41,887 nt of DNA from a virus. This document shows positions 17,378 to 41,067 of the stretch, one piece after another. A program made the position numbers and the translations under genes. The stretch's first letter is position 1. Each line of letters starts with the position of its first letter. The stretch is from positions 1 through 41,887 of IMG/VR virus record IMGVR_UViG_3300044695_006854; one strand, written 5' to 3'. The notes under the pieces were generated by a model. That model was not told the origin of the DNA and ran no database searches. It saw only the letters and a program-made list of their open reading frames with translations.

Positions 17378-17465
17378 GTCGCGACATGTGGGGATGCGAC
17401 GGGGGCGATGGGGTGGGTGGGTCGTTTTTTTGGGGAACGTGTCGCTTTGACAAATTTTGCGACAT
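17378..17465. promoter_or_regulatory. Possible cos/terminase-binding or operator region
   Basis: Repeated GCGAC/GTCGC words directly before the small terminase gene: GTCGCGAC palindrome at 17378-17385, GCGAC at 17396-17400, TGTCGC near 17440 and GCGACA near 17459, the last two forming an inverted repeat across TTTGACAAATTTT. Position and repeats suit a terminase-binding cosB-like site or a late-gene operator. Confidence 0.4.
17447..17465 (+). promoter_or_regulatory. TTGAC start-proximal element (small terminase)
   Basis: TTGAC followed by 14 nt and ATG 17466. Its position supports this start over an in-frame TTG at 17457. Confidence 0.55.
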
Positions 17466-18119
17466 ATGCCGAAGGATGAATACTCGGATCTGCGACAGGC
17501 CTATGCGGCGGCTTCGGGGGTGACGTTGCGGACGGCGCAGCGGCATCAGCGGTCGAACCATCCGGACTGGCAGCGGTTCATCGGGGTGACGGCGGGGCAG
17601 GCAGTGAAGCGCGGGGCGATCGAGAAAGCGGACGCGGCCGCGTTGGCGGCGGTGTCGCCGCACCGGCCGGAAGAGGAGCCGCGGTTCTATGAGGTGGACG
17701 AGAAGGATCTGGCACCGGCGCAGATCAACGAAAAGCGCGCCTGGGAGATCCACCGGCGGACGTTCGAGGAATGGCGGCGACAGCTCGAGGGAGTGCACGG
17801 GGAGCCGATCATCGCGCTGGCGTTTGCGAAGGAACTGCCGCGGCTGCGGGAGGACTACGAAAAGGCGCGGGCGGCGCGGGAGCGGTGGGAGATCGAGCAG
17901 CGGCGGCTGATCCCGTCGCATGAGTTCGAGCGGTTCGTGGGGCAGTTCCTGATCCCGCTGGCGGAGCTGCTGAAAAATCTGCCGGTGGAGCTGCCGGTGA
18001 TGATGAATCCGGACAATCCGAGCTATGCGCGGGAGCGGGTGCTGGAGTGGTTGAGGGGCAAGGCGGAGCTGCAGATCTCGGAGATGCTGCGGGGGGCGGA
18101 TGAATTCCTGGCGGCATGA
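17466..18119 (+). CDS. Terminase small subunit
   Basis: 217 aa. A short N-terminal HTH-like region (DLRQAYAAASGVTLRTAQRHQR) would bind the packaging site. A long acidic helix (about 65-150) and a C-terminal domain (FVGQFLIPLAELLKNLPVEL) follow, like Nu1-type small subunits paired with GpA-type large subunits. It overlaps the large subunit by ATGA. The non-coding region upstream is the likely recognition site. Confidence 0.7.
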   Translation: MPKDEYSDLRQAYAAASGVTLRTAQRHQRSNHPDWQRFIGVTAGQAVKRGAIEKADAAALAAVSPHRPEEEPRFYEVDEKDLAPAQINEKRAWEIHRRTFEEWRRQLEGVHGEPIIALAFAKELPRLREDYEKARAARERWEIEQRRLIPSHEFERFVGQFLIPLAELLKNLPVELPVMMNPDNPSYARERVLEWLRGKAELQISEMLRGADEFLAA

Positions 18120-19945
18120 ACCGACTGGCTTCGATCGTGGCTCCGCACTTCCGGTTCGACCGGGCGCCTTCGGTGACGGACTGGGCGGAGAAGAATCTGC
18201 GGCTGCCGCCGGAGATGTCGCCCAGGTCACACGGGCCGTTCTCGGTGCGGTCCCGGCCCTGGGCGCGGGAGCTGCTCGAGGTGTGGCATCCGGAGAGCGG
18301 GGTGCGGAAGTGTGATGTGGCGGCCGGCGTCCAGATCGTGAAGACGACCTCGATGGTCGTGGGGATCTGTTACCGCATGTGCTATTCGCCGGTGCCGGTG
18401 ATGATCGTCGGCGGGATGTCGGCCGACTTCGCGAAGCGGGAGATCTCGACGAAGCGGCTGCATCCGCTGATCAATGCGAACGAGGTGCTGCGCCGGTTGA
18501 AGCCATACGATCCGAACCAGTTCGGGAAGGGGGAGATGATGATGGCGTATGCTCCGATTTTGGTGACGGGGGCGGGGTCGGACACGAACCTGGCGGGATC
18601 GACGCAGGGGATCGTCGCGATCGATGAGGCGGCGAAGATCCTCCAGGAGGCGAGCGACGAGGCCCCGGAGGCGCACCCGATCCGGTTGGCGGAGGACCGG
18701 ACGAAGGACTTCCTCGGGAGCGAGTTCGTGTGGAAGAGCTCGACGCCGAATTCGCCGAATCACCTGTTCTGGCAGGACGTGCAGGCGGGGACGTTCACGC
18801 ATCTGTATGTGCCGTGTCCGCACTGCGGGGAGTATTTCCCGTTCGAATTCGAGAGCCGGAAGGGCGGCGAGGTGGCCAGCGCGGTGCAGCTGGGGGAGAC
18901 GATGGACGAAGGGAAGCCGCGGGAGTATCGGTCGGTGGTGTGGAGCCAGGCGGCGCGGAATGAGGACGGCACCTGGGACGAGCAAAAGGTGCGGGAGACG
19001 ACGCGCTACATCTGCCCGCACAACGGCTGCGAAATCCGGGACGAACACAAGCCGCGGATGCTGGAGGCCTACGAGGCGCGGGATCACAATCCGCGCGCGA
19101 GTTCGTCGCACCGGTCGTATCGGATCCCCAGCTTCTATGCTCCGACGCGGCGGTTCTCGGATCTGGCGATGGCGTTCCTCTCGCGGGGGGATTTGTTCTC
19201 CACGGGGCTGCAGGTGTTCTTCAATCACGAGCTGGCCCTGCCCTGGACGGACATCGATCTGAGGTTGAAGGACGAGGATCTGTGGGCGTGCCGGGCGGAG
19301 GGTGACATCGCCTACGTGCGGGGGATGGTGCCGTCGAAGCCGGGGGTGTTGTTCGCGGCGGCGGACATCGGGCAGACGGCCTCGCACTGGTGCGTGGCGA
19401 TGATCGATGCCGAGGAGAATCTGTGGGTGGTGGACTGGGGCACGGTTCTGTCGATCGACGATTTGCTGAAGCAGCCGGGGCAGTGGGTGTATCACCGGGC
19501 GGGGAAACCGGAGGCGAAGATGCGCCCGCACCGGGGACTGGTCGATTCCGGCGACTTCACGAGCGACGTCTACAAGATGTGTCAGCGGAGCGGCCGGTTC
19601 TGGTGGCCGTCGAAGGGATCGAACGCGACGAGCGGGGAGTGGGGCCAGTCGAAGCTGGCGGCGTATCCGGGGCTGATGCTCTACACCTACGTCGACAAGG
19701 TGGCGAAGGATGAGCTCTACGATCTTCGCATCCACCGGAAAAGCGGGCGGCGGGTCTTCCTGCCGGCGGATGTGACGACGGATTTCGTGGACGGGCTGCG
19801 GGGGCAGGAGCGGGTGAACAAGGGGATGAACGCGCGGTGGAAGGATGTGCGCGAGGATCACTACGGGGACGCGCTGAAGCTGATCCAGGTGTTGAGCTGG
19901 ATCTTCTCGGGATCGCGGGCCCCGGGGGATGAGACGGCGCGTTGA
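18116..19945 (+). CDS. Terminase large subunit, GpA family
   Basis: 609 aa, normal length. The opening VTDWAEKNLRLPPEMS is typical of lambda gpA-like terminases. The ATPase has a degenerate Walker A (AAGVQIVKTTSM, about 68-80) and Walker B (QGIVAIDEAAKIL, about 163-175). A zinc-binding knuckle CPHCGEYFPFEFE with a second CPHNGCEI follows. The nuclease domain begins near residue 416 (AAADIGQTASHWCVAMID) with later acidic residues (LVDSGDFTSDV). It packages genomic DNA into proheads; GpA relatives mostly cut at cos sites. Confidence 0.9.
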   Translation: MNRLASIVAPHFRFDRAPSVTDWAEKNLRLPPEMSPRSHGPFSVRSRPWARELLEVWHPESGVRKCDVAAGVQIVKTTSMVVGICYRMCYSPVPVMIVGGMSADFAKREISTKRLHPLINANEVLRRLKPYDPNQFGKGEMMMAYAPILVTGAGSDTNLAGSTQGIVAIDEAAKILQEASDEAPEAHPIRLAEDRTKDFLGSEFVWKSSTPNSPNHLFWQDVQAGTFTHLYVPCPHCGEYFPFEFESRKGGEVASAVQLGETMDEGKPREYRSVVWSQAARNEDGTWDEQKVRETTRYICPHNGCEIRDEHKPRMLEAYEARDHNPRASSSHRSYRIPSFYAPTRRFSDLAMAFLSRGDLFSTGLQVFFNHELALPWTDIDLRLKDEDLWACRAEGDIAYVRGMVPSKPGVLFAAADIGQTASHWCVAMIDAEENLWVVDWGTVLSIDDLLKQPGQWVYHRAGKPEAKMRPHRGLVDSGDFTSDVYKMCQRSGRFWWPSKGSNATSGEWGQSKLAAYPGLMLYTYVDKVAKDELYDLRIHRKSGRRVFLPADVTTDFVDGLRGQERVNKGMNARWKDVREDHYGDALKLIQVLSWIFSGSRAPGDETAR

Positions 19946-19960
19946 CATGCCTTCGGGCGC
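19942..19960 (+). promoter_or_regulatory. TTGAC start-proximal element
   Basis: TTGAC (19942-19946) contains the terminase stop TGA; 14 nt to ATG 19961. Confidence 0.5.
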
Positions 19961-20275
19961 ATGACCTCGCAGCGCGTGCTGGTGAATTCCTATCTGGCGT
20001 CCGCGAGGGCGGCGGCGACGACGCAGGCGGGCCGGTTGGCCTGGCTGGAGGCGCGGCGCGCGGCGCTGTCGGAAGAAGTGGAGGGCGGCGACTGGGAGGT
20101 GGGATCGACGGCCTACGACGGGCACTCGGCGACTTCGCGGCGGATGGCCTCGGCTCAAGCGCGATTGCAGGCGGTGTTCCGAGCGATCGAGGTGCTGACG
20201 GCCAACGAAGACGCGACCTCGGACAGCGGCACCGGGATCCTGATCCCCCGATTCTCGGGACTGCCTCACGCCTAA
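19961..20275 (+). CDS. Small head-tail joining (gpW-position) protein
   Basis: 104 aa. Helical N-terminus (YLASARAAATTQAGRLAWLEARRAAL), then SAYDGHSATSRRMASAQARL-like helix-loop-helix organisation and a short tail. It lies between terminase and portal, the place of lambda gpW. Sequence resemblance to gpW is weak, so the call rests on size, helix content and position. Confidence 0.45.
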   Translation: MTSQRVLVNSYLASARAAATTQAGRLAWLEARRAALSEEVEGGDWEVGSTAYDGHSATSRRMASAQARLQAVFRAIEVLTANEDATSDSGTGILIPRFSGLPHA

Positions 20276-20276
20276 G

Positions 20277-21941: not shown

Positions 21942-21948
21942 CGGAGGA

Positions 21949-21983: not shown

Positions 21984-21988
21984 ATAGG

Positions 21989-22007
21989 TTGACAGGTGGG
22001 CAGGGGC
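21989..22007 (+). promoter_or_regulatory. TTGAC start-proximal element (head protease)
   Basis: TTGAC then 14 nt then ATG 22008, which favours this start over GTG 21996. Confidence 0.55.
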
Positions 22008-23177
22008 ATGCCTGCGAAGACTGTTCCTTTTCCTGTTGGTGATGTGGCCCCGAGCTTTTCGATCCGCGCGGAAGCGGGTGGGAAAGGGGTGATCGATATT
22101 CGGGGGACGATCGGGCTGGAGAAGTTTTTCGGCGAGGAGTATGGCATCGATGCCGGGGGCACGGTCTCGGATTTCGACCGGGAGCTGAAGGCGCTGGGCG
22201 AGGTGCGCGAGATCGAGCTGAACATCTACTCGCTGGGCGGGGATGTGTTCACGGCGCTCGGGATCCAGAGCATCCTGGCGCGGCACTCGGCGCGGGTGGT
22301 GGCAAACGTGGACGGCATCGCGGCCTCGGCGGCGACGATCATCCTGATGGCGGCGGACGAGATCCGCGTGCCCGAGAATGCCTACCTCATGATCCACAAT
22401 GCCTCGACCTACGGGTGGGGCGACTACCGCGCGCTGTCGGCGATGGCGGACGATCTGAAGAAGTGGAGCCGCGACATGGCGAACCTCTACGCGGCGCGCA
22501 TCGAGGACAACACCGGCGGCGATCGCACCGCGATCCTCGCGGAAGTGATCGAGAAAATGGACGCGGAGACCTGGCTGACCGGCGCGGAAGCGAAGGCGCT
22601 CGGCCTGGTCGAAACGGTGACGGGGCGCGCGGAACTCGCGGCCTGCGCGGTGCCGGCTCCGCTGCGGATGGCGATGACGAGCGAGCGGATTCCGGAGGCG
22701 GTGAAGGCGCTGCTCTTTGACAGGCCAACGGCGGAAGTTATGAGCGATCCCATCGAACCCATCGCCCCGGCCGCGGTCGAGCCCGACGTCACTGTCGAGC
22801 CCGAGGCCGAAGTCACCGAGGACACTGCCACGGCCACGGTCGAGGAGACTCCCGCTCCGGTTGCTCCGGTGGTGGAACCTGTGCCCGCTCCGCAGGCGCT
22901 GACTCTCGAGGCCGTGACGGCCGCGATGCAGGGCGTCGTCGAGAACGCGGTGAAGCCGATCGCGGAGCGTCTCGAAAAAGCGGAAGCGGCCCTCGCCACG
23001 GAGCAGGCGCTGCGCGCGAACAAGGTGCCGGTGAATGCCTGGGGAAACCAGCAGCCGGCCGACACCGCGGAATCGTCGGCGGAAGCGCCGCGCGATCCGG
23101 ATTTCGCGACCCTGACCGCGCACCAAAAAATGGAACTCGGGCGCCGCAAGATGTTCCCGGCCGCCTTCAAAAACTGA
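22008..23177 (+). CDS. ClpP-like head maturation protease fused to scaffold
   Basis: 389 aa. Residues 27-215 are a ClpP-type serine protease: IDIRGTIG, LNIYSLGGDVFTALGI, nucleophile S107 in VDGIAASAAT, and H130 in AYLMIHNAST. The oxyanion-type GG (77-78) is intact. From about 240 a Pro/Val/Glu-rich linker leads to a helical C-terminal domain (EAVTAAMQGVVENAVKPIAERLEKAEAALATE), typical of a scaffolding domain. It processes the prohead. The C-terminal part may also be made separately from ATG 22740. Confidence 0.85.
   Translation: MPAKTVPFPVGDVAPSFSIRAEAGGKGVIDIRGTIGLEKFFGEEYGIDAGGTVSDFDRELKALGEVREIELNIYSLGGDVFTALGIQSILARHSARVVANVDGIAASAATIILMAADEIRVPENAYLMIHNASTYGWGDYRALSAMADDLKKWSRDMANLYAARIEDNTGGDRTAILAEVIEKMDAETWLTGAEAKALGLVETVTGRAELAACAVPAPLRMAMTSERIPEAVKALLFDRPTAEVMSDPIEPIAPAAVEPDVTVEPEAEVTEDTATATVEETPAPVAPVVEPVPAPQALTLEAVTAAMQGVVENAVKPIAERLEKAEAALATEQALRANKVPVNAWGNQQPADTAESSAEAPRDPDFATLTAHQKMELGRRKMFPAAFKN
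22717..22739 (+). promoter_or_regulatory. TTGAC element before internal start 22740
   Basis: TTGAC with an 18-nt spacer plus GGAAG six to seven bases upstream of an in-frame ATG inside the protease gene. Confidence 0.45.
22740..23177 (+). CDS. Internal-start scaffolding protein (Nu3-like)
   Basis: 145 aa predicted from the in-frame ATG 22740 in the protease gene. It has its own GGAAG Shine-Dalgarno and a TTGAC element. It would contain exactly the Pro/Glu-rich linker and coiled-coil scaffold region without the protease. Lambda makes its scaffold Nu3 from the 3' part of the protease gene C in the same way. Support is positional and by analogy; the product is not proven. Confidence 0.45.
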   Translation: MSDPIEPIAPAAVEPDVTVEPEAEVTEDTATATVEETPAPVAPVVEPVPAPQALTLEAVTAAMQGVVENAVKPIAERLEKAEAALATEQALRANKVPVNAWGNQQPADTAESSAEAPRDPDFATLTAHQKMELGRRKMFPAAFKN

Positions 23178-23225
23178 CCCGCGTTTGACGCGATCCCCTT
23201 TGCTCAACCATCCCTCCTCACTGAC

Positions 23226-24293
23226 ATGCCCACCCTGCTCGAAATCTGCCAGGCCCGCCAGATCCCCTTTACCGGTGGGATCATCGAGGCGGTCGAAACC
23301 GCCGTGCCCGCCCTGATGGCATTCGACACCCGCACCACGAGCGGGACGAAATTCCAGGCTCTGGCCCGCACCTCGCTGCCCACTGCTTCGGGCTTCAAGG
23401 ATTACAACCAAGGCGCGACGGCGGGTGCCGCCTCGTTCGCCCTGCGCGAGTTCCAGGCCAAGCTGCTCCTCGCCAAGGTGCAGGTGGAGATGGTGACCGC
23501 GGCCCGCTGGGATGCGGAGAAGGCGGTCGATGCGCCGAGCTACTTCGACCTGCAGGTGCAAGCCACGATGCAGTCCGAAATGAAGAACCTCGAGAAGTGT
23601 CTCTTCTACGGCACGAGCCAGGACGCGAAGGCCTTCCCGGGCCTGAAGCAACTGACGCCCTACGTGACCGCGAACGTGCTGACCCTGACCGAAGATCCGG
23701 GCGCGACCGACTACATCAAGACGGTGATCAACGCGGCCGGCACGACCTCCTCGACCGCCTCGTCGGTCTACTCCGTGGTGCACGGGGTGCTCGACTGCCA
23801 GCTCGTGGTCTGCAACGACAACGGCGGCGAACTGCTCGGGATGACCGAGCCCTTCCGCCAGGCTCTCGCGCCTGACTCGAACAGCCCGACGGCCACGCTG
23901 GAATACATGCTGGCGCAGATCTCCGGACACTTCGGCGTCTCGGTGAGCGGCATGAACCAGACCCCGAACAGCGTCGTGCCGACGCAGTATTCGGTGCGCC
24001 GCCTCGCCAACCTGACCGAAGACTCGGGCAAGGGCGTGACCGACGCGAAGCTGGAGCAGCTCGTGCTTTCCCACGGCGACGGCATCGTGCCCAGCCGACT
24101 CTACATGAACGGGCGCAGCGCCCGTCAGTGGGCGGACAGCCGCAGCGCCTCGACCGCGACCCTCTTCCTCGGAATGAGCGGCGACGCCCGGAACAACACC
24201 GGCAGCCTCCGCGCGAAGCGGCCCGACAACTTCGAGGGCATCCCGGTGACCTACACCTCGGCGATCGCGTCGAACGACGCCATCGAAAGCTGA
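23226..24293 (+). CDS. Major capsid protein
   Basis: 355 aa, the most conserved-looking structural gene after the protease/scaffold. N-terminal helix PTLLEICQARQ, then repeated beta segments, MQSEMKNLEKCLFYGTSQD (spine-helix-like), GDGIVPSRLYMNGRSARQW and FEGIPVTYTSAI, consistent with an HK97-fold capsid subunit. No signal of an N-terminal delta domain, in keeping with a separate or fused scaffold. The 48-bp leader after the protease contains TTTGACGCG about 35 bp before the ATG, which could be part of a promoter. Confidence 0.8.
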   Translation: MPTLLEICQARQIPFTGGIIEAVETAVPALMAFDTRTTSGTKFQALARTSLPTASGFKDYNQGATAGAASFALREFQAKLLLAKVQVEMVTAARWDAEKAVDAPSYFDLQVQATMQSEMKNLEKCLFYGTSQDAKAFPGLKQLTPYVTANVLTLTEDPGATDYIKTVINAAGTTSSTASSVYSVVHGVLDCQLVVCNDNGGELLGMTEPFRQALAPDSNSPTATLEYMLAQISGHFGVSVSGMNQTPNSVVPTQYSVRRLANLTEDSGKGVTDAKLEQLVLSHGDGIVPSRLYMNGRSARQWADSRSASTATLFLGMSGDARNNTGSLRAKRPDNFEGIPVTYTSAIASNDAIES

Positions 24294-24889: not shown

Positions 24890-24909
24890 TTGACGCGGGA
24901 CGGAAGGGG
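24890..24909 (+). promoter_or_regulatory. TTGAC start-proximal element (glycosyltransferase)
   Basis: TTGAC with a 15-nt spacer before ATG 24910; the spacer also holds GGAAGGGG, a Shine-Dalgarno-like run. Confidence 0.5.
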
Positions 24910-25596
24910 ATGAAACTGTTTCTCGCGTTGCCGGTGTATGGCGGATACGACCCGCATTTTGTGACTGGATTGCTGGGGCTGGTGGCGAAGCCGCCCTGCG
25001 AGATGGTGGTGCACCCGGTGATCGGGGATAGCCTGGTGGCTCGGGCCCGGAACCGGGCTGCGGCAAAGTTCCTCGCAAGCGATTGCACGCACCTGCTCTT
25101 CCTGGACACGGACCTGATCTTCGACGCGGCGCAGATCGCGCGACTGATTTCGCACGGGGAACCGGTGGTGGCGGGGCTGTATCCGAAGAAACAGGCGGAG
25201 CTGGGCTGGGTGTGCAACCTGCTGCCAGGCGAGGAGATGGACGAGCGCGGCCTGAAGCCGGTGCGGTATGCGGGCACGGGGTGTTTGCTGGTGGCCAGGG
25301 AAGTGCTGGAGGCGATGCGGGAGCGGTGGCCGGAGCTGGAGTATGATCCGGATGACGGGGACGAGCCGGGGGTGAAGTGGGACTTCTTTTCTTGCGGGGT
25401 TTACCGGTGCCCGGAGACGGGGCTGCGGAGGTATCTGTCGGAGGATTGGTGGTTTTGCCAGAGGGTGCTGGATCTGGGTCTGAAGGTGTGGATGGACACG
25501 CAGGTGATCCTGAAACACGTGGGGCAGGCGATCTATCCGCTGCAGGCACTTGACAGCTTCGCGGAGGAAATCGGAGAAGAGGAGACAAAATCATGA
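24910..25596 (+). CDS. GT-A type glycosyltransferase
   Basis: 228 aa. It shows an N-terminal strand KLFLALPVYGG, VARARNRAAAKFL, and the nucleotide-sugar metal site FLDTDLIF (D66-x-D68). It continues with VAGLYPKKQ and GTGCLLVAREVLEAM, and ends with a SEDWWFCQRV segment and the HVG motif, as in small phage-encoded GT-A enzymes. Its place among head genes suggests that it glycosylates the virion or the host. The last residues (ETKS stop) come from a GACAAAATCATG element. Confidence 0.75.
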   Translation: MKLFLALPVYGGYDPHFVTGLLGLVAKPPCEMVVHPVIGDSLVARARNRAAAKFLASDCTHLLFLDTDLIFDAAQIARLISHGEPVVAGLYPKKQAELGWVCNLLPGEEMDERGLKPVRYAGTGCLLVAREVLEAMRERWPELEYDPDDGDEPGVKWDFFSCGVYRCPETGLRRYLSEDWWFCQRVLDLGLKVWMDTQVILKHVGQAIYPLQALDSFAEEIGEEETKS

Positions 25597-26020: not shown

Positions 26021-26058
26021 CGGCCGCCGGGGAGCGATTCCCGGCGGCCGTTTGCTTT
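26021..26058 (+). terminator. GC-rich hairpin terminator
   Basis: Perfect 11-bp stem CGGCCGCCGGG / CCCGGCGGCCG, 8-nt loop, then TTTGCTTT. The end of this tail merges with the TTGAC element of the next gene. Confidence 0.7.
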
Positions 26059-26075
26059 GACTCGCGGGCGGAATC
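26057..26075 (+). promoter_or_regulatory. TTGAC start-proximal element
   Basis: TTGACTCGCGG, 14-nt spacer, ATG 26076; the first 11 bases recur at 26481. Confidence 0.55.
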
Positions 26076-26408
26076 ATGAACCCGCCCCGCTCCGCCTACG
26101 ATGCCGCACGCCGTCGCACGATGGAGGCGACGAAGTCGCTGCGCTGGGGGATCGTGAGCTACAACGGGGCGGACTACTGCTGCGCGGTGAGCCTGGACAA
26201 TGAGGGCTACGAGATCACGGACCGCGGGCCGAATGTGACGCACCGGATCCGGGCGACGTTCGCGAAGCGGGAACTTCCGACGCGGCCGGTGAAAGGAAAG
26301 AGCGTGACCTACCTGGGGATGGTGTTCGAGATCGAGCTGATCGGCGGCGACATGGAAGGGGATCCGGGATGGGTGGTGTCGGCGTTTCGGACGCCGGGGG
26401 CGGAGTGA
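26076..26408 (+). CDS. Probable head-tail completion protein
   Basis: 110 aa. A helical N-terminus (AYDAARRRTMEATKSLR) is followed by a compact beta-rich domain (WGIVSYNGADYCCAVS, KSVTYLGMVFEIELIGGD). The size and position after capsid genes fit a head-tail adaptor or stopper, but no motif is specific. Confidence 0.45.
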   Translation: MNPPRSAYDAARRRTMEATKSLRWGIVSYNGADYCCAVSLDNEGYEITDRGPNVTHRIRATFAKRELPTRPVKGKSVTYLGMVFEIELIGGDMEGDPGWVVSAFRTPGAE

Positions 26409-26480: not shown

Positions 26481-26499
26481 TTGACTCGCGGCGGCCATC
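26481..26499 (+). promoter_or_regulatory. TTGAC start-proximal element
   Basis: TTGACTCGCGG, 14-nt spacer, ATG 26500. Confidence 0.55.
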
Positions 26500-26736
26500 A
26501 TGGCTACGGAATGGCTTTGTGGGAAACGGGCGCATGATGCGCTGAGTCGGGCGCTGGGGGATCGGTGGATCATTCCGGACACGGGCACGCGGATCTCGGA
26601 TTCGGTGATCGAGTTCTCGGTGATCCGCCGGGGAATGGTCTACGATCCGCCGTCGCTCTACCGCATGCGGGTGAGCGAGGACGGGGTGCTGCTGGGGAGC
26701 TTCATCGGAGAGGTGACGGGGGAGGTGCCACGATGA
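26500..26736 (+). CDS. Small head-tail protein, unknown
   Basis: 78 aa, beta-rich (RWIIPDTGTRISDSVIEFSVI, YRMRVSEDGVLLGSF). The stop overlaps the next ATG (ATGA). It may be a head-tail or tail-terminator component; no family recognised. Confidence 0.45.
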   Translation: MATEWLCGKRAHDALSRALGDRWIIPDTGTRISDSVIEFSVIRRGMVYDPPSLYRMRVSEDGVLLGSFIGEVTGEVPR

Positions 26737-27195: not shown

Positions 27196-27939
27196 ATGTT
27201 CAACGTCGAGGCCAAGTTCACAAGGCGGGAATTCGAGGAATCGCTGGCGCGCTACGCGGCGGCGACGAAGCAGGATCTGCGCACGGTGCTCGAGAATCAA
27301 GCCCGCCTGTTCGTGACGGATGTGGTCAATGTGACGCCGCCGTTTTCGCAAGGGGTGAACGCAACGAAAGCGCGGCAACGCGGCGAGAAGTCGATCAAGA
27401 ACAACCTCAACCGGCTCTTCGTGGCGCGGCCGCTCCAAGGAAGCAGGAAGGTGACGCATCTCTTCGGGCGCACGGATGTGCCGGGTCTGCCCTACGTGGT
27501 GCGAACGAAGGAGAAGTATCCGGACGTGGAGGGCATCTATCGCGACGAGAAAAAACGCGCAAAGGGTTTCGCGGTGCGAGGGATGCGATTCCGGCAGCAG
27601 GAGTTGCCGGTGTCTCTGGCGAAGGTGCGGAAGATCTACGCACGGGAAAAAAAGATGGTGGGCTTTCTGGCCGGCGGATGGAACCGGGCTGCGACGGTGC
27701 TGGGCTCGAAGGTGCCCGCGTGGGTGAAGCGCCACGCGGGGGCCCCGGGAGCGATCTCAAAACGATTCGGCCGCACGAAGCTGTCGATCCGGATCGAGAA
27801 CCGGGTCGACTATGCGGCAGGGGTCGGCGGGATGCAGAAGCGCATGGCCTTCGCGCTCCGGAAACGCAGCGACGCAATGCGGATCGAGGCGCAGCGGGCG
27901 ATCGACGGGAAGGGCCGTTGGCGGCAGGCGAAACGTTGA
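27196..27939 (+). CDS. Tail protein, unknown, basic
   Basis: 247 aa, strongly basic. N-terminal helix (FTRREFEESLARYAAATKQDLRTVLE) followed by VVNVTPPFSQGVNATKARQRG, a pattern seen in HK97 gp10-like minor tail proteins (a helix then VTPxxTG). A long Arg/Lys-rich second half (RFGRTKLSIRIENRVDY) follows. It sits just before the tape measure gene. Confidence 0.45.
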   Translation: MFNVEAKFTRREFEESLARYAAATKQDLRTVLENQARLFVTDVVNVTPPFSQGVNATKARQRGEKSIKNNLNRLFVARPLQGSRKVTHLFGRTDVPGLPYVVRTKEKYPDVEGIYRDEKKRAKGFAVRGMRFRQQELPVSLAKVRKIYAREKKMVGFLAGGWNRAATVLGSKVPAWVKRHAGAPGAISKRFGRTKLSIRIENRVDYAAGVGGMQKRMAFALRKRSDAMRIEAQRAIDGKGRWRQAKR

Positions 27940-27960
27940 CAGGTCGGCGGAGGCAGTCCC
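27936..27960 (+). promoter_or_regulatory. TTGAC start-proximal element (tape measure)
   Basis: TTGAC contains the preceding stop TGA; the spacer to ATG 27961 is 20 nt, the longest in the set. Confidence 0.4.
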
Positions 27961-29442
27961 ATGATTTCCGAAGAACTGGTCCTGATCACGTCGCGGTTCG
28001 ACGCGGCTCTCGAGCGCATCACCAAGGAGGTGGAACAGAAGAGCCAGCGGATGCGGCGGAGCTTCGAGGGGGCGGGCGGGCGCGCTGGAGCGGGCGGGGG
28101 AGCGGGCGGGGGAATCTTGGGAGCGATCGGCGGCGGGGTCGGTGGCTTTGGAAAAGAACTGCTCGGACTCGCGGGATTTGGCAGTGCGATTGCGACTCTG
28201 ACGACGGTGGGCGCGACGGTGAAAGATTCGCTGGGACGTGCGGACGACATCGCGGACCTGACGCTGAAACTAAACGAATCGGCGGACGCGCTGCAGCGGG
28301 TGGACTTTGCCGGGAAACTAGCGGCGGGGCAAGGGGTGGAGCAGGTCGCCAACGCCATGGTCAAACTGGAGCGCGCCCTCGGGGATCCGGAAAACGAAAA
28401 AGCGGCGCAGGCTCTCCGGAATCTGGGCCTGACGGCAGAGCAACTGGCGGCGGTGCCCCTGGATCAAAAGATGATTCTGTTCGCAGAGGCATTCCAAAAA
28501 GCGCGGGCGTCCGGCACGGGCCTCAACGACATCCAGGCGCTGCTGGGACGAAGTGCGTCGGAGCTGATCCCGCTCTTCGAGCAGGGCGGGGATGCCCTGC
28601 GCGAGATGTTCGCGGAGGCGCCGGTGATGGGCGAAATGGCCACGCAACAACTGGCAAAAATCAACGACGAGCTCGATGCCCTCATTCTGAAAGGCAAGGG
28701 ATTGCTGGGCGAGGCAATCGGTGACGTGGCGATCACCGGCGGATTTTTCAGCGACGTCTTCAATGCGCTGCGCGAGGGCGCGAGTCTGCGGGAAGCCGGC
28801 GAAAGGGCCACGGCCAATTTGTTCAACGAGGAAATCCGGGTCAATCGCGAGGTGAAAGAGCGAGAAGCGAAGCGGCAAGAAACCGCTGCGGCCCAGCAGG
28901 CGGCGGCGCAGCGCGTCGCAGCGGAGGCCGCGGAAAAGGCCAAGCAGGAGGAACAAGCGAAGGAGCGCGAAGATTGGAAAAAGAGTTTCGAAAAAACAAG
29001 GCAGGAAGAACTGCGCCTGCAGGAACAATACCGCGACGCCCGCTTCGACACGATGACGCCGGAGCAGCAGCTGGCCACGCTCCTGAAACGGATGAGCGGA
29101 GCCATGGGCGTGACGACGACCGACGAGGCCGAGATCCTGAAAAAGGCGGACGAGCTGGCGTCGAGCGGGGCGACCCAGGAGGCGATGATCATGCTGCAGA
29201 CGCTGCAGGAGATCCGCACGCTGACGGCGCGGATGGGCGGGCTCGGCGGGATGGGCGCGATGGAGCGCACCCAACCGATGCACCAAGGGAGCTTCGCGGA
29301 TCTGATGGACCAGATCTTCGAGCGGGATCAACGCGCGCTGACGAACATCGCCACGAACACGGGCAACGCGAAGACGGTGCTCGACCGGATCCTCGAGAAC
29401 ATGGAGACGCCGCCGGACGAAGACAGGTTTGACGACCTGTAA
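27961..29442 (+). CDS. Tail tape measure-like protein
   Basis: 493 aa. Residues about 35-85 are Gly/Ala-rich and hydrophobic (GGGAGGGILGAIGGGVGGFG, GLAGFGSAIATL), followed by TapeMeas-type helices: DSLGRADDIADLTLKLNESADALQR, AMVKLERALGD, GLTAEQLAAVPLDQKM and LLGRSASELIPLFEQG. From about 285 to 365 it is a Lys/Glu/Ala coiled coil. This is the usual tape measure sequence style, but short, which would imply a short tail if the family length rule holds. Confidence 0.65.
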   Translation: MISEELVLITSRFDAALERITKEVEQKSQRMRRSFEGAGGRAGAGGGAGGGILGAIGGGVGGFGKELLGLAGFGSAIATLTTVGATVKDSLGRADDIADLTLKLNESADALQRVDFAGKLAAGQGVEQVANAMVKLERALGDPENEKAAQALRNLGLTAEQLAAVPLDQKMILFAEAFQKARASGTGLNDIQALLGRSASELIPLFEQGGDALREMFAEAPVMGEMATQQLAKINDELDALILKGKGLLGEAIGDVAITGGFFSDVFNALREGASLREAGERATANLFNEEIRVNREVKEREAKRQETAAAQQAAAQRVAAEAAEKAKQEEQAKEREDWKKSFEKTRQEELRLQEQYRDARFDTMTPEQQLATLLKRMSGAMGVTTTDEAEILKKADELASSGATQEAMIMLQTLQEIRTLTARMGGLGGMGAMERTQPMHQGSFADLMDQIFERDQRALTNIATNTGNAKTVLDRILENMETPPDEDRFDDL

Positions 29443-32587: not shown

Positions 32588-32606
32588 TTGACAAGGGCGG
32601 GCGGAC
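32588..32606 (+). promoter_or_regulatory. TTGAC start-proximal element
   Basis: TTGAC directly after the inverted repeat pair; 14-nt spacer to ATG 32607. Confidence 0.55.
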
Positions 32607-33284
32607 ATGGCGACGCACATCAATGTCCTGACCACCTACGGCGTGACGATTCCCACGGGATCGGAAGCGGAAAGCGCAACGCGCACGAAGACGGTGGAGA
32701 TCAACGAACTGCTTTCGGACGGATCGGGCGAGGTGGTGAAGGCGGCACCCGTGAACATGCAGAACCACGAGATCCAGGTGGACGGCGATGGGCCGTTTTC
32801 CCTGGCGCTGACGGCGGCGACGATCGCGACGGTCTCGACGGTGACGATCACGTCCGTGGAAATTTCGGAGGCGCCGAATCAACGGTGCCGCTTCTCGGTG
32901 CGGGCCGCGGCGGTGGCTTCGTTCTCGGATCCGGGCACGGCGGAGGCGAGCGTGGGTGCGGAGCCGACGGTGACGGATCTGGAGATCACGAGCGTGACCT
33001 ACTCGGTCGCGGAATCGGTGCGCCGGACGGCGACGCTGGAAGACAAGGTGCTGGTGGGCACGGACGGGACGCCGGCCTTCCGCGCGACGTGCACGGAGCG
33101 GCTGACCTTCGACATCGCGGGCCGCGGGGATCTGCCGGCCGGGCCTGCGCTGGGCACGGGAGGGGCGGAGTTTTTCGGCGCGGCCACGGGCGTGACGGTG
33201 GTCGGCACGCTGCGCGAAAGCGAGCGGCGCGCGGACTGGAATGGGTGGGGCGTGGCGGGGACGAACTATCCGCACGCATCTTGA
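32607..33284 (+). CDS. Tail tube-like structural protein
   Basis: 225 aa, almost entirely beta in pattern, with regular Thr/Val strands (TAATIATVSTVTITSVEISE, DLEITSVTYSVAES). Its size suits a tail tube or major tail subunit, and it is a stand-alone transcription/translation unit with its own TTGAC element. The call is by composition and place; no diagnostic motif was found. The last codons form one arm of a hairpin. Confidence 0.45.
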   Translation: MATHINVLTTYGVTIPTGSEAESATRTKTVEINELLSDGSGEVVKAAPVNMQNHEIQVDGDGPFSLALTAATIATVSTVTITSVEISEAPNQRCRFSVRAAAVASFSDPGTAEASVGAEPTVTDLEITSVTYSVAESVRRTATLEDKVLVGTDGTPAFRATCTERLTFDIAGRGDLPAGPALGTGGAEFFGAATGVTVVGTLRESERRADWNGWGVAGTNYPHAS

Positions 33285-34999: not shown

Positions 35000-35018
35000 T
35001 TGACACGCGCGCGAGCGC
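35000..35018 (+). promoter_or_regulatory. TTGAC start-proximal element (large tail protein)
   Basis: TTGACACGCGC followed by 14 nt and the GTG start at 35019. Confidence 0.5.
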
Positions 35019-37685
35019 GTGAACGCCCGCGTCTACCTCAACACCTCGTCCTACGCCTGGAGCGAACGAATCGACGGGGGGAATTTCACCCCGCCGTCGA
35101 TCCGGGCGTATTCGGATCTGATCCTGCGATTCCGCCTGGCGAAGGAGATCGAGGGCACGCAGGTGCCGGACCCGCGCGAGGTGACGGCGGTGTCGGCCCG
35201 GATCGGATTCCAAGAGGACGCGCCGACGGAGGGCACCTACACGCTGACGCTGACGGTGGGCGCGAACTCGCGCACGACGGCGGCGATCGCCTACAACGCG
35301 ACGGCGGCGGAGCTGAAGGCGGCGCTCGACCTGGCGACGGACGGCACGACGCTGGACGCGCTGGCGCCGTGCACGGTGTCGCTGACGAATGGCGATTACC
35401 GGATCCGCTTCGCCGATGCGACTGCGGTGGTGGACATCGAGGCGGCGTCGAATCTGCTGTGGCCGCTCTCGTTCGTCGATGCGGACCGCTTCGCCTACAA
35501 CGGCGGATGGGCGACGACGCTGACGCTGCGCCAGGCGCCGGTGGCGGAGACGGTGGTGGTGGAGGAGACGGTGGCTCCGGAGCCGACGATCGAGCTGATC
35601 CAGGCGGGGAGCACGACGGACGGCGTGATGATCAACGAGGTGCAGAAGATCCTGCTCTCGCCGAGCTACGCGGGCGGCACCTTCAAGGTGGTGCGCAGCG
35701 GCAACAAGTCGGACGTGCTGGCGGGCTTCCCGGCGGAGGACGATCTGCAGGAGGCGCTCGACGGCCTGATGGAGGAGGGGGAGGAAATCTTCCTGGTGCC
35801 GGTGGAGGACGGCTACCTGATCGAATTCCGCGGCGAGGCGGCGGGCACGGCGCAGGATCTGATGACGGTGGAGGAATTCACTCCGCCGCCGGTGGAGTAT
35901 CTCGTCTTTCTCACCACGAAGACGGCGGCAATGCGGGCGCTGATGCGCGGCGCGGACAACACGAGCGACGACATCGAGGTGCCGCTGGATCTGGTGGTGA
36001 CGGTGACGGACGCGGACGCCCCGGGGGGATCGCAGGATCTGAACTTCCCGCTGCCGCTGACGTTCACCCGGCCGGTCTCGGATGACGAGCGGAACGTGTC
36101 GGCGGCGCTGGACTACACCCAGCCGCTCGGGCGGACCTCGAACATCAAGTTTTCGACGAACTCGCTGCTGGTGGGGAACCGGGCAATGCGCTTCACGATC
36201 GGCGACGGATCGGCGACGTCCTTCGTCCTGAACCACAACCTGGGCAGCCTGTCGGCGGCCTTCACGGTGAATGCCTCGACGGATGTCTGCACCTCGGCAG
36301 GACACAACCTGCACAACGGCGACCCGGTGACGCTCTCCTCGACGACGACGCTGCCGGCGGGCCTGAGCACGGGCACGACCTACTACGTGATCAACGCGGC
36401 GACGGACACCTTCAAGCTGTCCGCGACGCCGAACGGATCGGCCGTGAACATCACGGGCACGGGGACGGGGACGCATTCCTTCCTGGTGGCGGATGGGACG
36501 ACGGACGCGGTCTTCGTGGAGGTGTGGGAAAAGGCGGGCGGCGCGACGCGGATCTCGCCGGAGGACTACACGGTGACGCGGACGAGCGCGAAAGCGGTGA
36601 CGGTGTCGGGATTCGCGAGCACACCGACCTCGAATCAATACGAGGTGATCGTGCAGACGGCGGGACGCCCGGCCACCTATCAAAGCCACACGCATCCGAT
36701 CGCGGAGGTGCTGCTGCTGCAGGACGAGCTGGACGCGATCAAGGCGCGCCTCGCTGCGCTCGAGGCCAACACGCCCTCGAATCCGCCGGTCGGATCGGTC
36801 TCGTCGGGGGCGTCGATCTCGCGACCGCTGGGCAATGTCTGGCGCGTGCCGCGCGCGCGGCAGATCACCGAGAAGCCGGGCTCGCTGCTGGAGTGGCGGG
36901 TCGCGGGCGAGGAGCTGGGCGAGGAGCCGCGGCGGCCGATCCGCCTGCTGCCGGCCGTCCACGACGCGAGCACGGAGAGCCTGCCGAGTCCGTTGCCGGC
37001 CCCGGGCGACACCTACAAGGGGCGGGTCTTTTCAGTCTCGACGACGCGGACGGACTTCCCGGGCGGCGGTCTCAAGAGCGGCGACTTCGCAGCCTGCGAC
37101 GGTCGCGAGTGGTATCAGGTGACGCGGCAAGGGACGACCTCGAGCTATCACCCGACGCCTTTCGAGATGGTGCTGTTCCGCACGGCGATCAACGAAGGCG
37201 AATTCCCGAACGCATCGAAGCTGGAGCTGATGCTGGGATTCGAGGCGGTCGTTTTCATGTTGGAAAAAAAGGTGCGCGAAAGGCTCTCGGCTTGCCACTG
37301 GACGCTGCTGATCGAGAGCGGCACGCTGACGGCGGAGACCACGCCGGGCACGCCGGGCGCGAACCTGGGCGCGGCCTTCGGCTCGCCGGTGGTGCTCGCC
37401 GAGCAGCGCATCACCCTGACGGAGATCCCGAGCGCGCACCGCTTCGGGGTCGTGATCAATCGCGCGGCGAACGGCACACTGAGCGCGGACAAGGTGCTCT
37501 ACACGAAACAGTCCGCGACGACGGCACCGAGCGCGGTGCCGATGGCCTTGCGCGCACGGCTGGTGCGCTTCGACACGGAAAACGATCCGACGGACGCCCG
37601 CGGCGTGGTCGCGGTGCGGGGCCTCGACGTGGGCCTCGACGGGCAACCGGACTCTACCCTGGGAATGGTCAAGATCCTCAACTGA
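35019..37685 (+). CDS. Large tail/tip protein
   Basis: 888 aa from GTG 35019, the largest gene. The first ~350 residues are repetitive beta modules rich in Thr/Ala/Glu. Near 425-490 is a phage-type domain AGHNLHNGDPVTLSS, TYYVINAATDTFKLS and TGTGTHSF. At about 565-585 is a short coiled coil (EVLLLQDELDAIKARLAAL). The C-terminal third is mixed and Gly-rich. The modular beta architecture and location before the Ig-like fibre genes suggest a tail tip or fibre base. Confidence 0.6.
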   Translation: MNARVYLNTSSYAWSERIDGGNFTPPSIRAYSDLILRFRLAKEIEGTQVPDPREVTAVSARIGFQEDAPTEGTYTLTLTVGANSRTTAAIAYNATAAELKAALDLATDGTTLDALAPCTVSLTNGDYRIRFADATAVVDIEAASNLLWPLSFVDADRFAYNGGWATTLTLRQAPVAETVVVEETVAPEPTIELIQAGSTTDGVMINEVQKILLSPSYAGGTFKVVRSGNKSDVLAGFPAEDDLQEALDGLMEEGEEIFLVPVEDGYLIEFRGEAAGTAQDLMTVEEFTPPPVEYLVFLTTKTAAMRALMRGADNTSDDIEVPLDLVVTVTDADAPGGSQDLNFPLPLTFTRPVSDDERNVSAALDYTQPLGRTSNIKFSTNSLLVGNRAMRFTIGDGSATSFVLNHNLGSLSAAFTVNASTDVCTSAGHNLHNGDPVTLSSTTTLPAGLSTGTTYYVINAATDTFKLSATPNGSAVNITGTGTGTHSFLVADGTTDAVFVEVWEKAGGATRISPEDYTVTRTSAKAVTVSGFASTPTSNQYEVIVQTAGRPATYQSHTHPIAEVLLLQDELDAIKARLAALEANTPSNPPVGSVSSGASISRPLGNVWRVPRARQITEKPGSLLEWRVAGEELGEEPRRPIRLLPAVHDASTESLPSPLPAPGDTYKGRVFSVSTTRTDFPGGGLKSGDFAACDGREWYQVTRQGTTSSYHPTPFEMVLFRTAINEGEFPNASKLELMLGFEAVVFMLEKKVRERLSACHWTLLIESGTLTAETTPGTPGANLGAAFGSPVVLAEQRITLTEIPSAHRFGVVINRAANGTLSADKVLYTKQSATTAPSAVPMALRARLVRFDTENDPTDARGVVAVRGLDVGLDGQPDSTLGMVKILN

Positions 37686-37688
37686 GCC

Positions 37689-38417
37689 ATGGCCGTGCCC
37701 GTCATCTCTCCGCCTGGCTCGCCGCGGTCGATCGCGGTCGGGGTCGCGATCGCTCCACTGGTCCTTTCGGCGACGGGATCCCCGGGAGTCTGGACGGCCT
37801 CGCCGCTGCCGGCCGGGCTGACGCTGGACGCGGCCACGGGCACGATCACCGGCACGCCGACGACGGCGGGGGTGACGACCACGTCGATCACCGCGAGCAA
37901 CAATGACGGCACGAGCGCGGCCGTCTCGGTGACCTGGACGACCTCGACGGCCCCGGCGGGCGCGGGTCTCTGGAGCGACCTCGAGATCGACGTAGAGCAC
38001 GGCACCCGCATCGTGACGGTGCCGGGCCTGCCACCGCTGCCGGCGGGGGAGATTTTTTCCATCTCGCGCGGGGACGTGATCGACCTGCTCATCGGCCTGC
38101 GGAAGTATGGCGTGCTGCAGGATCTGGGATCGAGCGTCGGGGTGCGGATCGCGGTGAAGGAGTTTGAGAGCGAGGCGGTGATCGAGCTGGCCGGAGGCAC
38201 GGCGACGCGCGTGCAGACTGGCAGCCTTGCGGACACGACCCGCTACCGCATCCGCCTCGTGATTACGCCCGCCAAGTGGGCCCTGCTCGCGGATTACGAG
38301 GGCGATGCCATGACGGCGGCGAGCCTGCCGACGCAGATCGAGCTGTATGTGGGATCGACGCGGATTTGCTCGGACACGTTTCTCGTCGAGGTGATCCAGG
38401 ATGCGGTGCCGGATTGA
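37689..38417 (+). CDS. Ig-like (He_PIG) tail fibre protein, paralogue 1
   Basis: 242 aa. Residues about 1-85 are a putative Ig domain of the He_PIG type: LPAGLTLDAATGTITGTPT, TAGVTTTSITASNNDGTSAA. A C-terminal domain follows (DLEIDVEHGTRIVT, VIDLLIGLRKYGVLQDLGSS, LLADYEGDAM). The next gene starts with the same two domains. Likely a fibre or adhesin subunit; Ig-like domains in phages often bind surface carbohydrates. Confidence 0.65.
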   Translation: MAVPVISPPGSPRSIAVGVAIAPLVLSATGSPGVWTASPLPAGLTLDAATGTITGTPTTAGVTTTSITASNNDGTSAAVSVTWTTSTAPAGAGLWSDLEIDVEHGTRIVTVPGLPPLPAGEIFSISRGDVIDLLIGLRKYGVLQDLGSSVGVRIAVKEFESEAVIELAGGTATRVQTGSLADTTRYRIRLVITPAKWALLADYEGDAMTAASLPTQIELYVGSTRICSDTFLVEVIQDAVPD

Positions 38418-38456
38418 GCCTCACACAAAGCCACGAAGCCACAAAGGTAAACCAGC
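38418..38456 (+). repeat. CACAAAGCCACGAAGCCAC word repeat
   Basis: Short run of 'aaagccac' words between the two Ig-like genes; non-coding. Confidence 0.5.
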
Positions 38457-39923
38457 ATGCCCATCCCGGTCCTGACCGCCCCGACGACGCCGCGCATCCT
38501 CGCGCAGGGCGTCGCGATCCCGACGCTGACGCTGTCGGCGAGCAACACGCCGACGAGCTTCGCGGCGTCGCCTCTGCCGGATGGGCTGTCGATCAACACC
38601 TCGACGGGGGCGATCACCGGCACGCCGACGACGGCGGGGCTGACGACCAGCTCGCTGACGGCGACCAACGGCGACGGCACCAGTGCGGCGGTGCCGCTGG
38701 TGTGGGACATCCAGGCCTCGGCGACCGGGCAGGGACTCTGGAGTGACCTGGAGCTGGACCTCGACCTGGTGACGCGCGAGGTGTCGCGGCCGCTCGTGGC
38801 GACGCCGGACACGCGCGTGGTCGCGCGGATGCTCAGGAAGGACAACATGAGCCTGCTGGTCGGGGCGAAAAAGTGGGGCGTGCTCCGCGACCTAAAGCCT
38901 GGATCGGAGACGGTCTCGGTGAAAATGGCGCTCAAGGAATTCTCGCCGGAGATCAACCTGCTCGTGGCCGGCGGCACGCCGACGAAGGTGGGCAGCGGAG
39001 CGTCGACGCGCTTCCGGATCCCGATCCAGATAACGGAGGCGCAGTGGACGGTGCTGAGCGACTACGAAGGCGACGCGCGGACGATGGTGTCGGCGGTCGC
39101 CGAGATCGAGATCGAGGTGGGCGTGCTGCGGGTGTCGTCGAGGCCGTTCCGGATCGAGATCGTGCGGGATCATTTCCCGCCGCTGCCGAGTCCGAGCGCA
39201 AGCGCAAGCGCGAGTCCGAGTCCGAGCCCGTCGGGGTCGGGGCCGTATTTCTTCGCTCTGGCCTACGGTAGTTTTGGGAATCCCGCGTGCGAAAGTCAGA
39301 ATGGCTTAACCGCCTACGCTTACGTTCCGGTGTTGGATGTGGGCGTGGCGCTTTTTTCCGACCAGGATCTTTTGTATCCTCTCCTCGGTTACGCCGATTA
39401 TGGACTGAGCGATGGGGTGTATTTTTATGCCGTCGATGGCAGCGGCGGCATCACCGCAAAGAGCGCGTGCGCCCCGTCCTCGTCCTCGGCCCCGCCATCG
39501 TCCTCGGCCCCGCCATCGTCTTCGGCCCCGCCGTCGACCTTGCCCCCGCCATCGTCTTCGGCCCCGCCGTCGTCCTCGGCCCCGCCGTCGTCCTCGGCTC
39601 CGCCGTCGTCCTCGGCACCGCCGTCGTCCTCGGCACCGCCGTCGTCCTCGGCCCCGCCATCGTCTTCGGCCCCGCCGTCGTCATCGGCACCCAGCTACTA
39701 CAGTTACTCCCTGTCCTTCGATGCGACCGGATACGCCGGCGCATGCTCCGCGTGGCCGACGGCCTCGACCTATTATTCGGCGAGCAGCCCGCTGGGTTTC
39801 GGTTCGTATCTCTACACCGATTCCAATCTGGGGACACCCGCCAACGACGGGCACTACTCGACCGGCACGACCTACTACACGGTCTACGGGAGCGGTTACA
39901 TCTCGGCGACAGGATCGTGCTGA
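38457..39923 (+). CDS. Ig-like fibre with Ser-Pro linkers and duplicated tip domain, paralogue 2
   Basis: 488 aa. Residues 1-245 repeat the Ig plus C-terminal domain of the preceding gene. Then come an Ala-Ser-Pro linker (PSASASASPSPSPSG) and two related 80-residue domains: YFFALAYGSFGNPACES... and YYSYSLSFDATGYAGACSA.... Each is rich in Tyr, ends in GSGxI(T/S)A...C and has paired cysteines. The two are joined by about 12 SSSAPP repeats. This looks like an extended adhesin with two receptor-binding heads on a flexible stalk. Confidence 0.65.
   Translation: MPIPVLTAPTTPRILAQGVAIPTLTLSASNTPTSFAASPLPDGLSINTSTGAITGTPTTAGLTTSSLTATNGDGTSAAVPLVWDIQASATGQGLWSDLELDLDLVTREVSRPLVATPDTRVVARMLRKDNMSLLVGAKKWGVLRDLKPGSETVSVKMALKEFSPEINLLVAGGTPTKVGSGASTRFRIPIQITEAQWTVLSDYEGDARTMVSAVAEIEIEVGVLRVSSRPFRIEIVRDHFPPLPSPSASASASPSPSPSGSGPYFFALAYGSFGNPACESQNGLTAYAYVPVLDVGVALFSDQDLLYPLLGYADYGLSDGVYFYAVDGSGGITAKSACAPSSSSAPPSSSAPPSSSAPPSTLPPPSSSAPPSSSAPPSSSAPPSSSAPPSSSAPPSSSAPPSSSAPPSSSAPSYYSYSLSFDATGYAGACSAWPTASTYYSASSPLGFGSYLYTDSNLGTPANDGHYSTGTTYYTVYGSGYISATGSC
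39475..39690 (+). repeat. 18-nt tandem repeat coding SSSAPP
   Basis: About 12 copies of an 18-nt unit (tcctcggccccgccatcg and variants) forming the stalk of the fibre gene. Prone to length change. Confidence 0.85.
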
Positions 39924-39926
39924 CGC

Positions 39927-41030
39927 ATGCCCGAGCTCGAAAAATACCTCGGCATCTACGGCGACCAGACGGGCCGCTACCGAACCTACGGGCACAGCAA
40001 CCACGGGGCCGCGGCGATGCCGATGATCGAGGCGATGCGGCCGACGTCGATCCTCGACATCGGCTGCGGGTGGAACGAATTCGCGCATGAGTGGCAAGCC
40101 CGCGGCCTGCGCGCCATCGGCGTCGATTTTGCCTGCCCGGGCGCGGACCTGATCGGCGACCTGGTCGCGGGCCTGCCCTATGCGGCGCGCGAGTGGGATC
40201 TGCTGACGGCCTTCGACCTGCTCGAGCACCTCCGCCCGGAGCAGGTCGATGTCGCGCTCGCGGAGATGGCAAGGATCTCGACCCGATTCGTCCTCTCGAT
40301 CTGCTACACGGACAGCCGCAACCGATGGGATGGCGAGACGCTGCACCCGACGGTGCGGCCGCAGGCGTGGTGGATGGAGCGGCTGCGCGCGGCCGGGGCG
40401 GTGCAGCTGCGCGTCGAGGGCCGCTACCTGACCGGACGCTGGAATGCGCCGATGGGCCTGCCGGCGACCGCGAGCGTGGTGGTGGTCGGCAACGGTCCCT
40501 CGCTGCTGGCGGCCACCGATGGCGGGCGCATCGACGGGCATGACCTGGTGATCCGCTGCAACAACTACAAGGTCGCCGGATGGGAGCGGCACGTGGGCAC
40601 GCGCACCGATGTGTGGGCGGTCTGCGGGGCGACGCCGACCAATGAGCAGGCTTGCCCGCGCGCCCTGCTCATCCACGAGGGGCGACCGGTGCCGGAGGGG
40701 ATCACGATGCCGCACGTGGTCGCGCGCGCGGACTACGACCGCTATCGGCGCATGCTGCAGGATCGCGCCTGGATCCGGAGCGGGTGCCGGATCGATCCCG
40801 CGCCCCTGCTGGCGAGCACGGGACTGATGACGACGCTGTGGCTGCTGGAGCGGGGCGGGGTGGAGGTGGTGACTTTGGCAGGGTTCGACCATTTCCAAAA
40901 GGCCAAGAGCGGCCTGCACCACTACTGGATCCCGCGGAATTTCGCGCGGCCGAAGGAGCACGACGGGGATGCGGAGGCGGAGATCTTCGCGGAGCTGGCG
41001 CGGGCGGGGCGGGTGCGGTATCTGCGGTAG
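39927..41030 (+). CDS. Methyltransferase-GT29-like glycosyltransferase fusion
   Basis: 367 aa. Residues about 20-165 are a class I SAM methyltransferase: motif [13 protein letters not shown] (41-52), [11 protein letters not shown], then [13 protein letters not shown]. From about 180 a second enzyme begins with [34 protein letters not shown] and [10 protein letters not shown], the large sialylmotif pattern of GT29. [12 protein letters not shown] near 295 resembles the small sialylmotif, and GLHHYW follows. GT29 relatives transfer sialic-acid-type sugars. The pairing suggests modification of a methylated sugar on virion or host glycans. Both assignments are by motif. Confidence 0.7.
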
Positions 41031-41047
41031 CAGTGACCGCCGACCGA

Positions 41048-41067
41048 TTGACACCCCGGCTCCCGAC
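41048..41067 (+). promoter_or_regulatory. TTGAC start-proximal element (collagen-like gene)
   Basis: TTGAC (41048-41052) with a 15-nt spacer to GTG 41068. Confidence 0.5.

What the first reader, a model, noticed from the sequence alone, without database searches (positions are those of the whole stretch)
17447..41067. TTGAC at a fixed 14-nt distance from uncoupled late start codons
TTGAC precedes the starts at 17466, 19961, 22008, 26076, 26500, 29448, 32607 and 35019 with 14 nt between, at 24910 and 41068 with 15, and at 22740 and 27961 with 18 and 20. Genes coupled to their neighbour by ATGA lack it. This is too close to the start to be a -35 box for that gene (a -10 would fall inside the gene), and most sites lack a Shine-Dalgarno sequence. 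It looks like a translation-initiation or mRNA-processing signal for genes that need independent initiation.
Basis: seen in the sequence. Interest (0 to 1): 0.8.

Follow-up and report, generated by a model that had tools for sequence, protein, structure and literature searches.

The report
Phage start signal TTGACA replacing Shine-Dalgarno
A group of uncultivated phages, probably infecting Verrucomicrobiota, puts the word TTGAC(A) a set 14-18 letters before many late genes that are not overlapped by the gene before them, where a ribosome-binding site would be expected but is missing; it looks like a new kind of 'start translating here' signal, though a promoter role is not excluded.

Summary
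All 12 listed TTGAC sites exist: eight are exactly 14 nt before ATG/GTG, and 14 is the strongest pentamer-distance association in the window. The signal is not private to this window. In relative L011 (TerL 64% identical) three orthologous starts keep TTGAC at 14 nt while the spacers diverged. In a large environmental phage clade the full hexamer (TTGACA, less often CTGACA) lies 13-17 nt before late-gene starts; 115 of 132 TTGACA in nine genomes are in this position. In all 52 non-redundant protease-scaffold ORFs of these relatives it also marks an internal in-frame start; the window's 22740 site is the same arrangement. There is no -10 box, fixed start-site base, Shine-Dalgarno excess or covarying hairpin. 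The signal is scarce where genes overlap or abut and enriched in the late module. I favour a Shine-Dalgarno-independent translation-initiation element for late genes (about 0.55). The main rival is a promoter for very short-leader transcripts: TTGACA is the -35 consensus and is scarce on both strands. Two isolated verrucomicrobial phages lack this geometry, and host genomes could not be reached, so partner molecule and host usage remain open.

The parts
17447..17468 (+). TTGACA, 14 nt from TTGAC to the ATG of the first late gene (17466-18119, by position the small terminase subunit); conserved in L011
19942..19963 (+). TTGACA + ATG 19961 (104-aa ORF between terminase and portal); overlaps the TGA of the terminase gene; conserved at 14 nt in L011 11848
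21989..22010 (+). TTGACA + ATG 22008 (head maturation protease); conserved at 14 nt in L011 13794
22717..22742 (+). TTGACA, 18 nt to internal ATG 22740, in frame inside protease ORF 22008-23177: probable nested scaffold start
24890..24912 (+). TTGACG, 15 nt to ATG 24910
26057..26078 (+). TTGACT, 14 nt to ATG 26076
26481..26502 (+). TTGACT, 14 nt to ATG 26500
27936..27963 (+). TTGACA, 20 nt to ATG 27961 (tape measure); overlaps the upstream stop codon
29429..29450 (+). TTGACG, 14 nt to ATG 29448; motif lies inside the upstream gene's coding sequence
32588..32609 (+). TTGACA, 14 nt to ATG 32607
35000..35021 (+). TTGACA, 14 nt to GTG 35019 (888-aa tail-related protein)
41048..41070 (+). TTGACA, 15 nt to GTG 41068; ORF open to the window end
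22008..23177 (+). Head maturation protease ORF with nested C-terminal (scaffold-like) start
18116..19945 (+). Terminase large subunit, ATGA-coupled, no TTGAC
23185..23228 (+). TTGAC 36 nt before the major head protein start (23226): outside the class geometry

Best explanation
TTGAC(A) is a cis-acting start signal of late genes in a broad set of related phages. It most likely acts in the mRNA: UUGACA, 13-17 nt upstream of the start codon, marks where a ribosome should initiate without a Shine-Dalgarno sequence. It is used at late genes that cannot rely on termination-reinitiation from an overlapping neighbour, and at internal in-frame starts such as the protease/scaffold pair. Shown: position locked to starts, conservation across divergent phages while the spacer changes, use at nested starts, late-module bias, absence of -10, SD and conserved hairpin. 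The binding partner is unknown.
For: (1) Distance-to-start histogram in the freshwater clade 14:7, 15:9, 16:6, 17:28, 18:8 and near zero elsewhere between 0 and 40 nt. (2) Unbiased 6-mer search upstream of 235 non-redundant starts: TTGACA 41 versus 2.0, CTGACA 13 versus 1.0. (3) 115/132 TTGACA on both strands of nine genomes are in start geometry. (4) Orthologous starts in L011 keep 14 nt with diverged spacers; a sister-clade gene keeps exactly 13 nt after TTGACA in 17/17 sequences whose spacer is not conserved. (5) 52/52 non-redundant protease ORFs carry TTGACA plus an in-frame internal ATG or GTG; all 68 motifs sit in the same codon phase as TTT/GTT-GAC-A, and 16 ORFs have two. (6) Rare where genes overlap or abut: 10/70 and 2/31, against 32/99 at gaps of 11-100 nt (sum of the two clades). 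(7) No -10, no AT-rich melting region. (8) In CDS, sense TTGACA outside start geometry is 1 versus up to 32 expected for all positions; 27 control loci show no avoidance.
Against: TTGACA is exactly the sigma-70 -35 consensus. The reverse complement is also depleted (6 versus 19.4; 0 versus 8.0 in late genes), which an RNA-only signal does not predict; the strand asymmetry is only suggestive (about P 0.01, own calculation). Late-module bias (34/97 versus 6/83) would also fit late promoters. The gap pattern is not significant in the freshwater clade alone (P 0.17), and 9/31 overlapping genes there carry the signal. No complementary rRNA site could be shown. Motif accessibility is no higher than with shuffled flanks (0.503 versus 0.500). 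No expression data.
Confidence: 0.55

Rival explanations
1. Late promoter element: an unusual RNA polymerase or sigma/activator combination recognises TTGACA and starts transcription a few nt downstream, giving leaderless or very short-leader mRNAs for each late gene, as the -10 motif next to ORFs does in Deinococcus.
For: TTGACA equals the -35 consensus; late-module bias; depletion on both strands; in verrucomicrobial phage P8625 five genes have TTGACA about 30 nt before ATG, which fits -35/-10/leaderless spacing; leaderless -10 precedent PMC12340547.
Against: No -10, no AT-rich region and no fixed purine start in logos aligned on TTGACA; spacer GC-rich; 10-14 promoters in a 35-kb genome, including two inside one ORF, would be needed; gene-gap pattern; no phage RNA polymerase or sigma gene seen in the window proteins scanned.
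Confidence: 0.25
2. mRNA processing site: a late endonuclease cuts at or near UUGACA and leaves 5' ends about 14-18 nt before each start codon.
For: Same positional evidence; fits polycistronic late mRNAs and nested starts.
Against: Shared nuclease not identified; antisense depletion not explained; a cut inside the protease ORF would destroy the upstream message.
Confidence: 0.1
3. Binding site of a phage regulator (DNA operator or RNA-binding protein) placed at gene starts.
For: An inverted repeat surrounds TTGAC at the first late gene in the window and L011 and, read from the sequences, in L047 and L048; sister-clade sites often show GACAC...GTGTC around the start codon.
Against: The repeats are absent at most sites; consensus folds show no covariation.
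Confidence: 0.07
4. Chance or a by-product of amino-acid or codon bias.
For: Window alone has only 8 exact hits; some other pentamers reach similar window-level significance.
Against: Conserved in many genomes with the same geometry and largely excluded elsewhere.
Confidence: 0.01

Closest known systems
Shine-Dalgarno ribosome-binding site
   Same: Short motif at a limited range of distances upstream of starts, tolerant by a few nt, often absent where genes overlap
   Different: Sequence UUGACA is not complementary to CCUCC and lies about 13-17 nt from the start, further than the usual SD spacing; SD-like words are not above control in late genes
SD-scarce translation initiation (Bacteroidota; Akkermansia and Verrucomicrobia bacterium IMCC26134 listed in PMC10783764)
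   Same: Starts without SD in bacteria that keep CCUCC
   Different: No specific hexamer at a set distance was mentioned in the passages read or found in the literature searches; Flavobacterium relies on Kozak-like single positions and low structure (abstract of PMC6847099)
Leaderless -10 motif next to ORFs (Deinococcus-Thermus, PMC12340547)
   Same: A motif at a constrained distance from the start codon of many genes
   Different: There TANNNT a few bp from the start, a true -10; here TTGACA with no -10
Lambda C/Nu3 nested protease/scaffold genes
   Same: Scaffold-like product predicted from an internal in-frame start of the protease gene (lambda comparison from general knowledge)
   Different: Here the internal start carries the same TTGACA signal as the ordinary genes; two nested signals in many relatives
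Sigma-70 -35 hexamer
   Same: Identical sequence TTGACA
   Different: Start codon lies where the -10 would be; -10 absent

Membership tests
Shine-Dalgarno RBS | Complementarity to CCUCC of 16S 3' end | tested here: not met
   Motif TTGACA; SD-like words at or below control in late genes
Shine-Dalgarno RBS | Spacing of about 5-10 nt to the start | tested here: not met
   13-17 nt after the hexamer
Sigma-70 promoter | TTGACA-like -35 | tested here: met
   Consensus TTGACA
Sigma-70 promoter | TANNNT -10 about 17 nt downstream, TSS upstream of the start codon | tested here: not met
   No TANNNT-like signal at that position; it falls in the gene
Leaderless -10 promoter | TANNNT a few nt before the start codon | tested here: not met
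   Logo aligned on the start shows none
Leaderless -10 promoter | Transcript 5' end at or next to the start codon | not testable with these tools
   No RNA data
Extended anti-SD pairing with 16S rRNA | UGUCAA/UGUCAG near the host 16S 3' end | not testable with these tools
   No host genome reached; genome collection scans exhausted
Lambda C/Nu3-type nested scaffold | In-frame internal start in the protease ORF | tested here: met
   52/52 relatives and the window; protein product not shown
Structured RNA element at starts | Conserved base pairing with covariation | tested here: not met
   No pair with both sides changed; energy excess over shuffled spacers exists and is unexplained
General host (Verrucomicrobiota) start signal | Same enrichment in host genes and in all phages of that phylum | tested here: inconclusive

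The most novel reading that the evidence does not exclude
A sequence-specific, Shine-Dalgarno-independent ribosome landing signal (UUGACA about 14-18 nt before the start) used for late phage genes and nested starts, read by a host ribosomal feature or late factor not yet described.
Probability: 0.4. Interest if true: 0.85.

Novelty: new variant of a known kind. Interest (0 to 1): 0.7.

Why it matters
How bacteria without Shine-Dalgarno sequences choose start codons is an open question. A short, strongly conserved, almost exclusively start-associated hexamer gives a directly testable handle. It would also improve gene calling in these phages: it reveals nested genes, and most of its 13-17 nt spacer range lies at or beyond the spacers in Prodigal's SD table (up to 15 bp).

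Tried and rejected
Hairpin presenting TTGAC in a loop: clear at the first late gene in four phages, not at other sites; consensus folds show no covariation. Extra accessibility of the motif: none. Synonymous-site suppression scan of the protease ORF: alignment too poor in the linker; replaced by direct codon-phase counts. Claim that early genes use SD instead: early SD 15 versus 10 in control, not kept. Strand asymmetry of TTGACA avoidance as proof of RNA action: both strands are depleted, so kept only as suggestive. UGA in TTGAC as a reinitiation stop: only some sites overlap an upstream stop codon. Literature searches found no description of such a signal.

Full report
Observation. The window is a virus record of 41,887 bases with an early module, a late module starting at 17466 and recognisable terminase, portal, head protease, major head and tape-measure genes. 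TTGAC occurs 34 times on both strands, fewer than the 53 expected by shuffling. On the plus strand 8 of 23 are followed after exactly 14 nt by the ATG or GTG of an ORF, where about 0.5 is expected; no other distance comes near. Two qualifications: 22740 is an in-frame start inside the protease ORF 22008-23177, and several late genes that do not overlap their neighbour lack the motif.

Relatives. The closest phage, L011 (terminase 64% identical), has the motif before the orthologues of 17466, 19961 and 22008, always 14 nt from the start, while the spacers have diverged. A wider terminase search and a protease search brought in a large clade, called 'freshwater' here for convenience (no habitat record was checked). 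Gene calling on nine of its genomes plus two partial ones (294 starts) gives distances of 14:7, 15:9, 16:6, 17:28 and 18:8 with almost nothing elsewhere up to 40 nt. A word search that did not assume the motif finds TTGACA as the top 6-mer 12-20 nt upstream (41 versus 2.0 expected), with CTGACA as its main variant (13 versus 1.0). In the nine genomes 115 of 132 TTGACA on both strands are in start geometry; in one genome all 13 are. These genomes are related, so the counts are not independent events; the non-redundant sets allow for that. Weaker but similar peaks occur in phages of 45-61% GC (G013/G020, G017/G018). A set of 27 control loci shows no avoidance of TTGACA, and most other loci scanned show no peak.

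Nested starts. In all 52 non-redundant protease ORFs of these relatives, TTGACA lies inside the ORF with an in-frame ATG or GTG 14, 17, 20 or 23 nt after the hexamer; 16 ORFs have two such signals. All 68 motifs have the same codon phase and read TTT-GAC-A or GTT-GAC-A. The window has the same arrangement at 22717/22740. This matches the known idea of a scaffold translated from an internal start of the protease gene (lambda C/Nu3, general knowledge), and it is hard to explain unless the word has to do with starting a protein.

Context. The signal is late-biased: 34 of 97 late and 6 of 83 early starts in the clade (P 5e-6); SD-like words are not clearly above control in either module. It is rare where the start overlaps or closely follows the upstream stop (10/70 and 2/31) and commoner at gaps of 11-100 nt (32/99) or more (37/98); these are sums of two clades, and the contrast is not significant in the freshwater clade alone. 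Major head genes lack the close signal and in a sister clade start after a nearly G-free CA-rich leader, sometimes with TTGACA about 50 nt away.

Mechanism. A promoter would need a -10, or at least a region that melts easily, and a consistent start base; logos aligned on TTGACA show none. A conserved RNA structure would show covariation; there is none, although spacers fold slightly better than shuffled ones, which I cannot explain. Inside coding sequences, sense TTGACA outside start geometry is almost eliminated (1 left, against 32 TTGACA expected), but the antisense word is depleted too (6 versus 19; 0 versus 8 in late genes). That leaves room for a DNA-level role. In verrucomicrobial phage P8625, TTGACA stands about 30 nt before five starts, as expected for a -35 of leaderless transcripts, not at 14-18 nt. 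I therefore favour a translation-initiation element at about 0.55 and give a short-leader promoter 0.25.

Host. Window proteins resemble those of Akkermansia phage Moulinsart (terminase 33%, integrase, endolysin), and the clade resembles P8625 (protease 52% over the aligned part, portal 30%). Some Verrucomicrobia are SD-scarce (PMC10783764). Yet neither isolate carries the 14-18 nt geometry, and no host genome could be reached, so whether the signal belongs to a host lineage or to the phages is open. No regulatory gene shared by the window and the clade was found, which weakly favours a host reader.

Noticed in passing
L047/L048/L123-L189 and sister clade, protease ORFs: Protease ORFs contain one or two nested in-frame start signals; the second product looks coiled-coil rich (scaffold-like).
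   Followed up: partly
L218 (P8625) 5448, 10772, 15594, 17541, 22442: TTGACA or TTGAC about 30 nt before ATG at several genes, some with a dyad like GTATCCA-N4-TTGGATAC: probable regulated leaderless promoters.
   Followed up: partly
39927-41030: Protein with a methyltransferase-like part and a short match to sialyltransferase family GT29 (PF00777).
   Followed up: no
L247-L289, upstream of the major head gene: Nearly G-free, CA-rich leaders of about 30-55 nt before the major head gene, in several phages with TTGACA overlapping the protease stop codon.
   Followed up: partly
17447 region; L011 9323; L047 6846; L048 4336: Inverted repeat around TTGAC only at the first late gene, stems differ between phages.
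   Followed up: partly
L011 8880-8925: tRNA 3'-end-like sequence next to the integrase gene, a likely attachment site that could identify the host.
   Followed up: no
41068-41887 and 1-4000: The ORF at 41068 runs off the window end, and an endolysin-like gene (3234-3926) lies at the other end, so the record may be circularly permuted or cut.
   Followed up: no
150 non-redundant start sites in relatives: Spacer plus flanks fold more stably than with shuffled spacers (mean 1.7 kcal/mol) without conserved pairs.
   Followed up: partly
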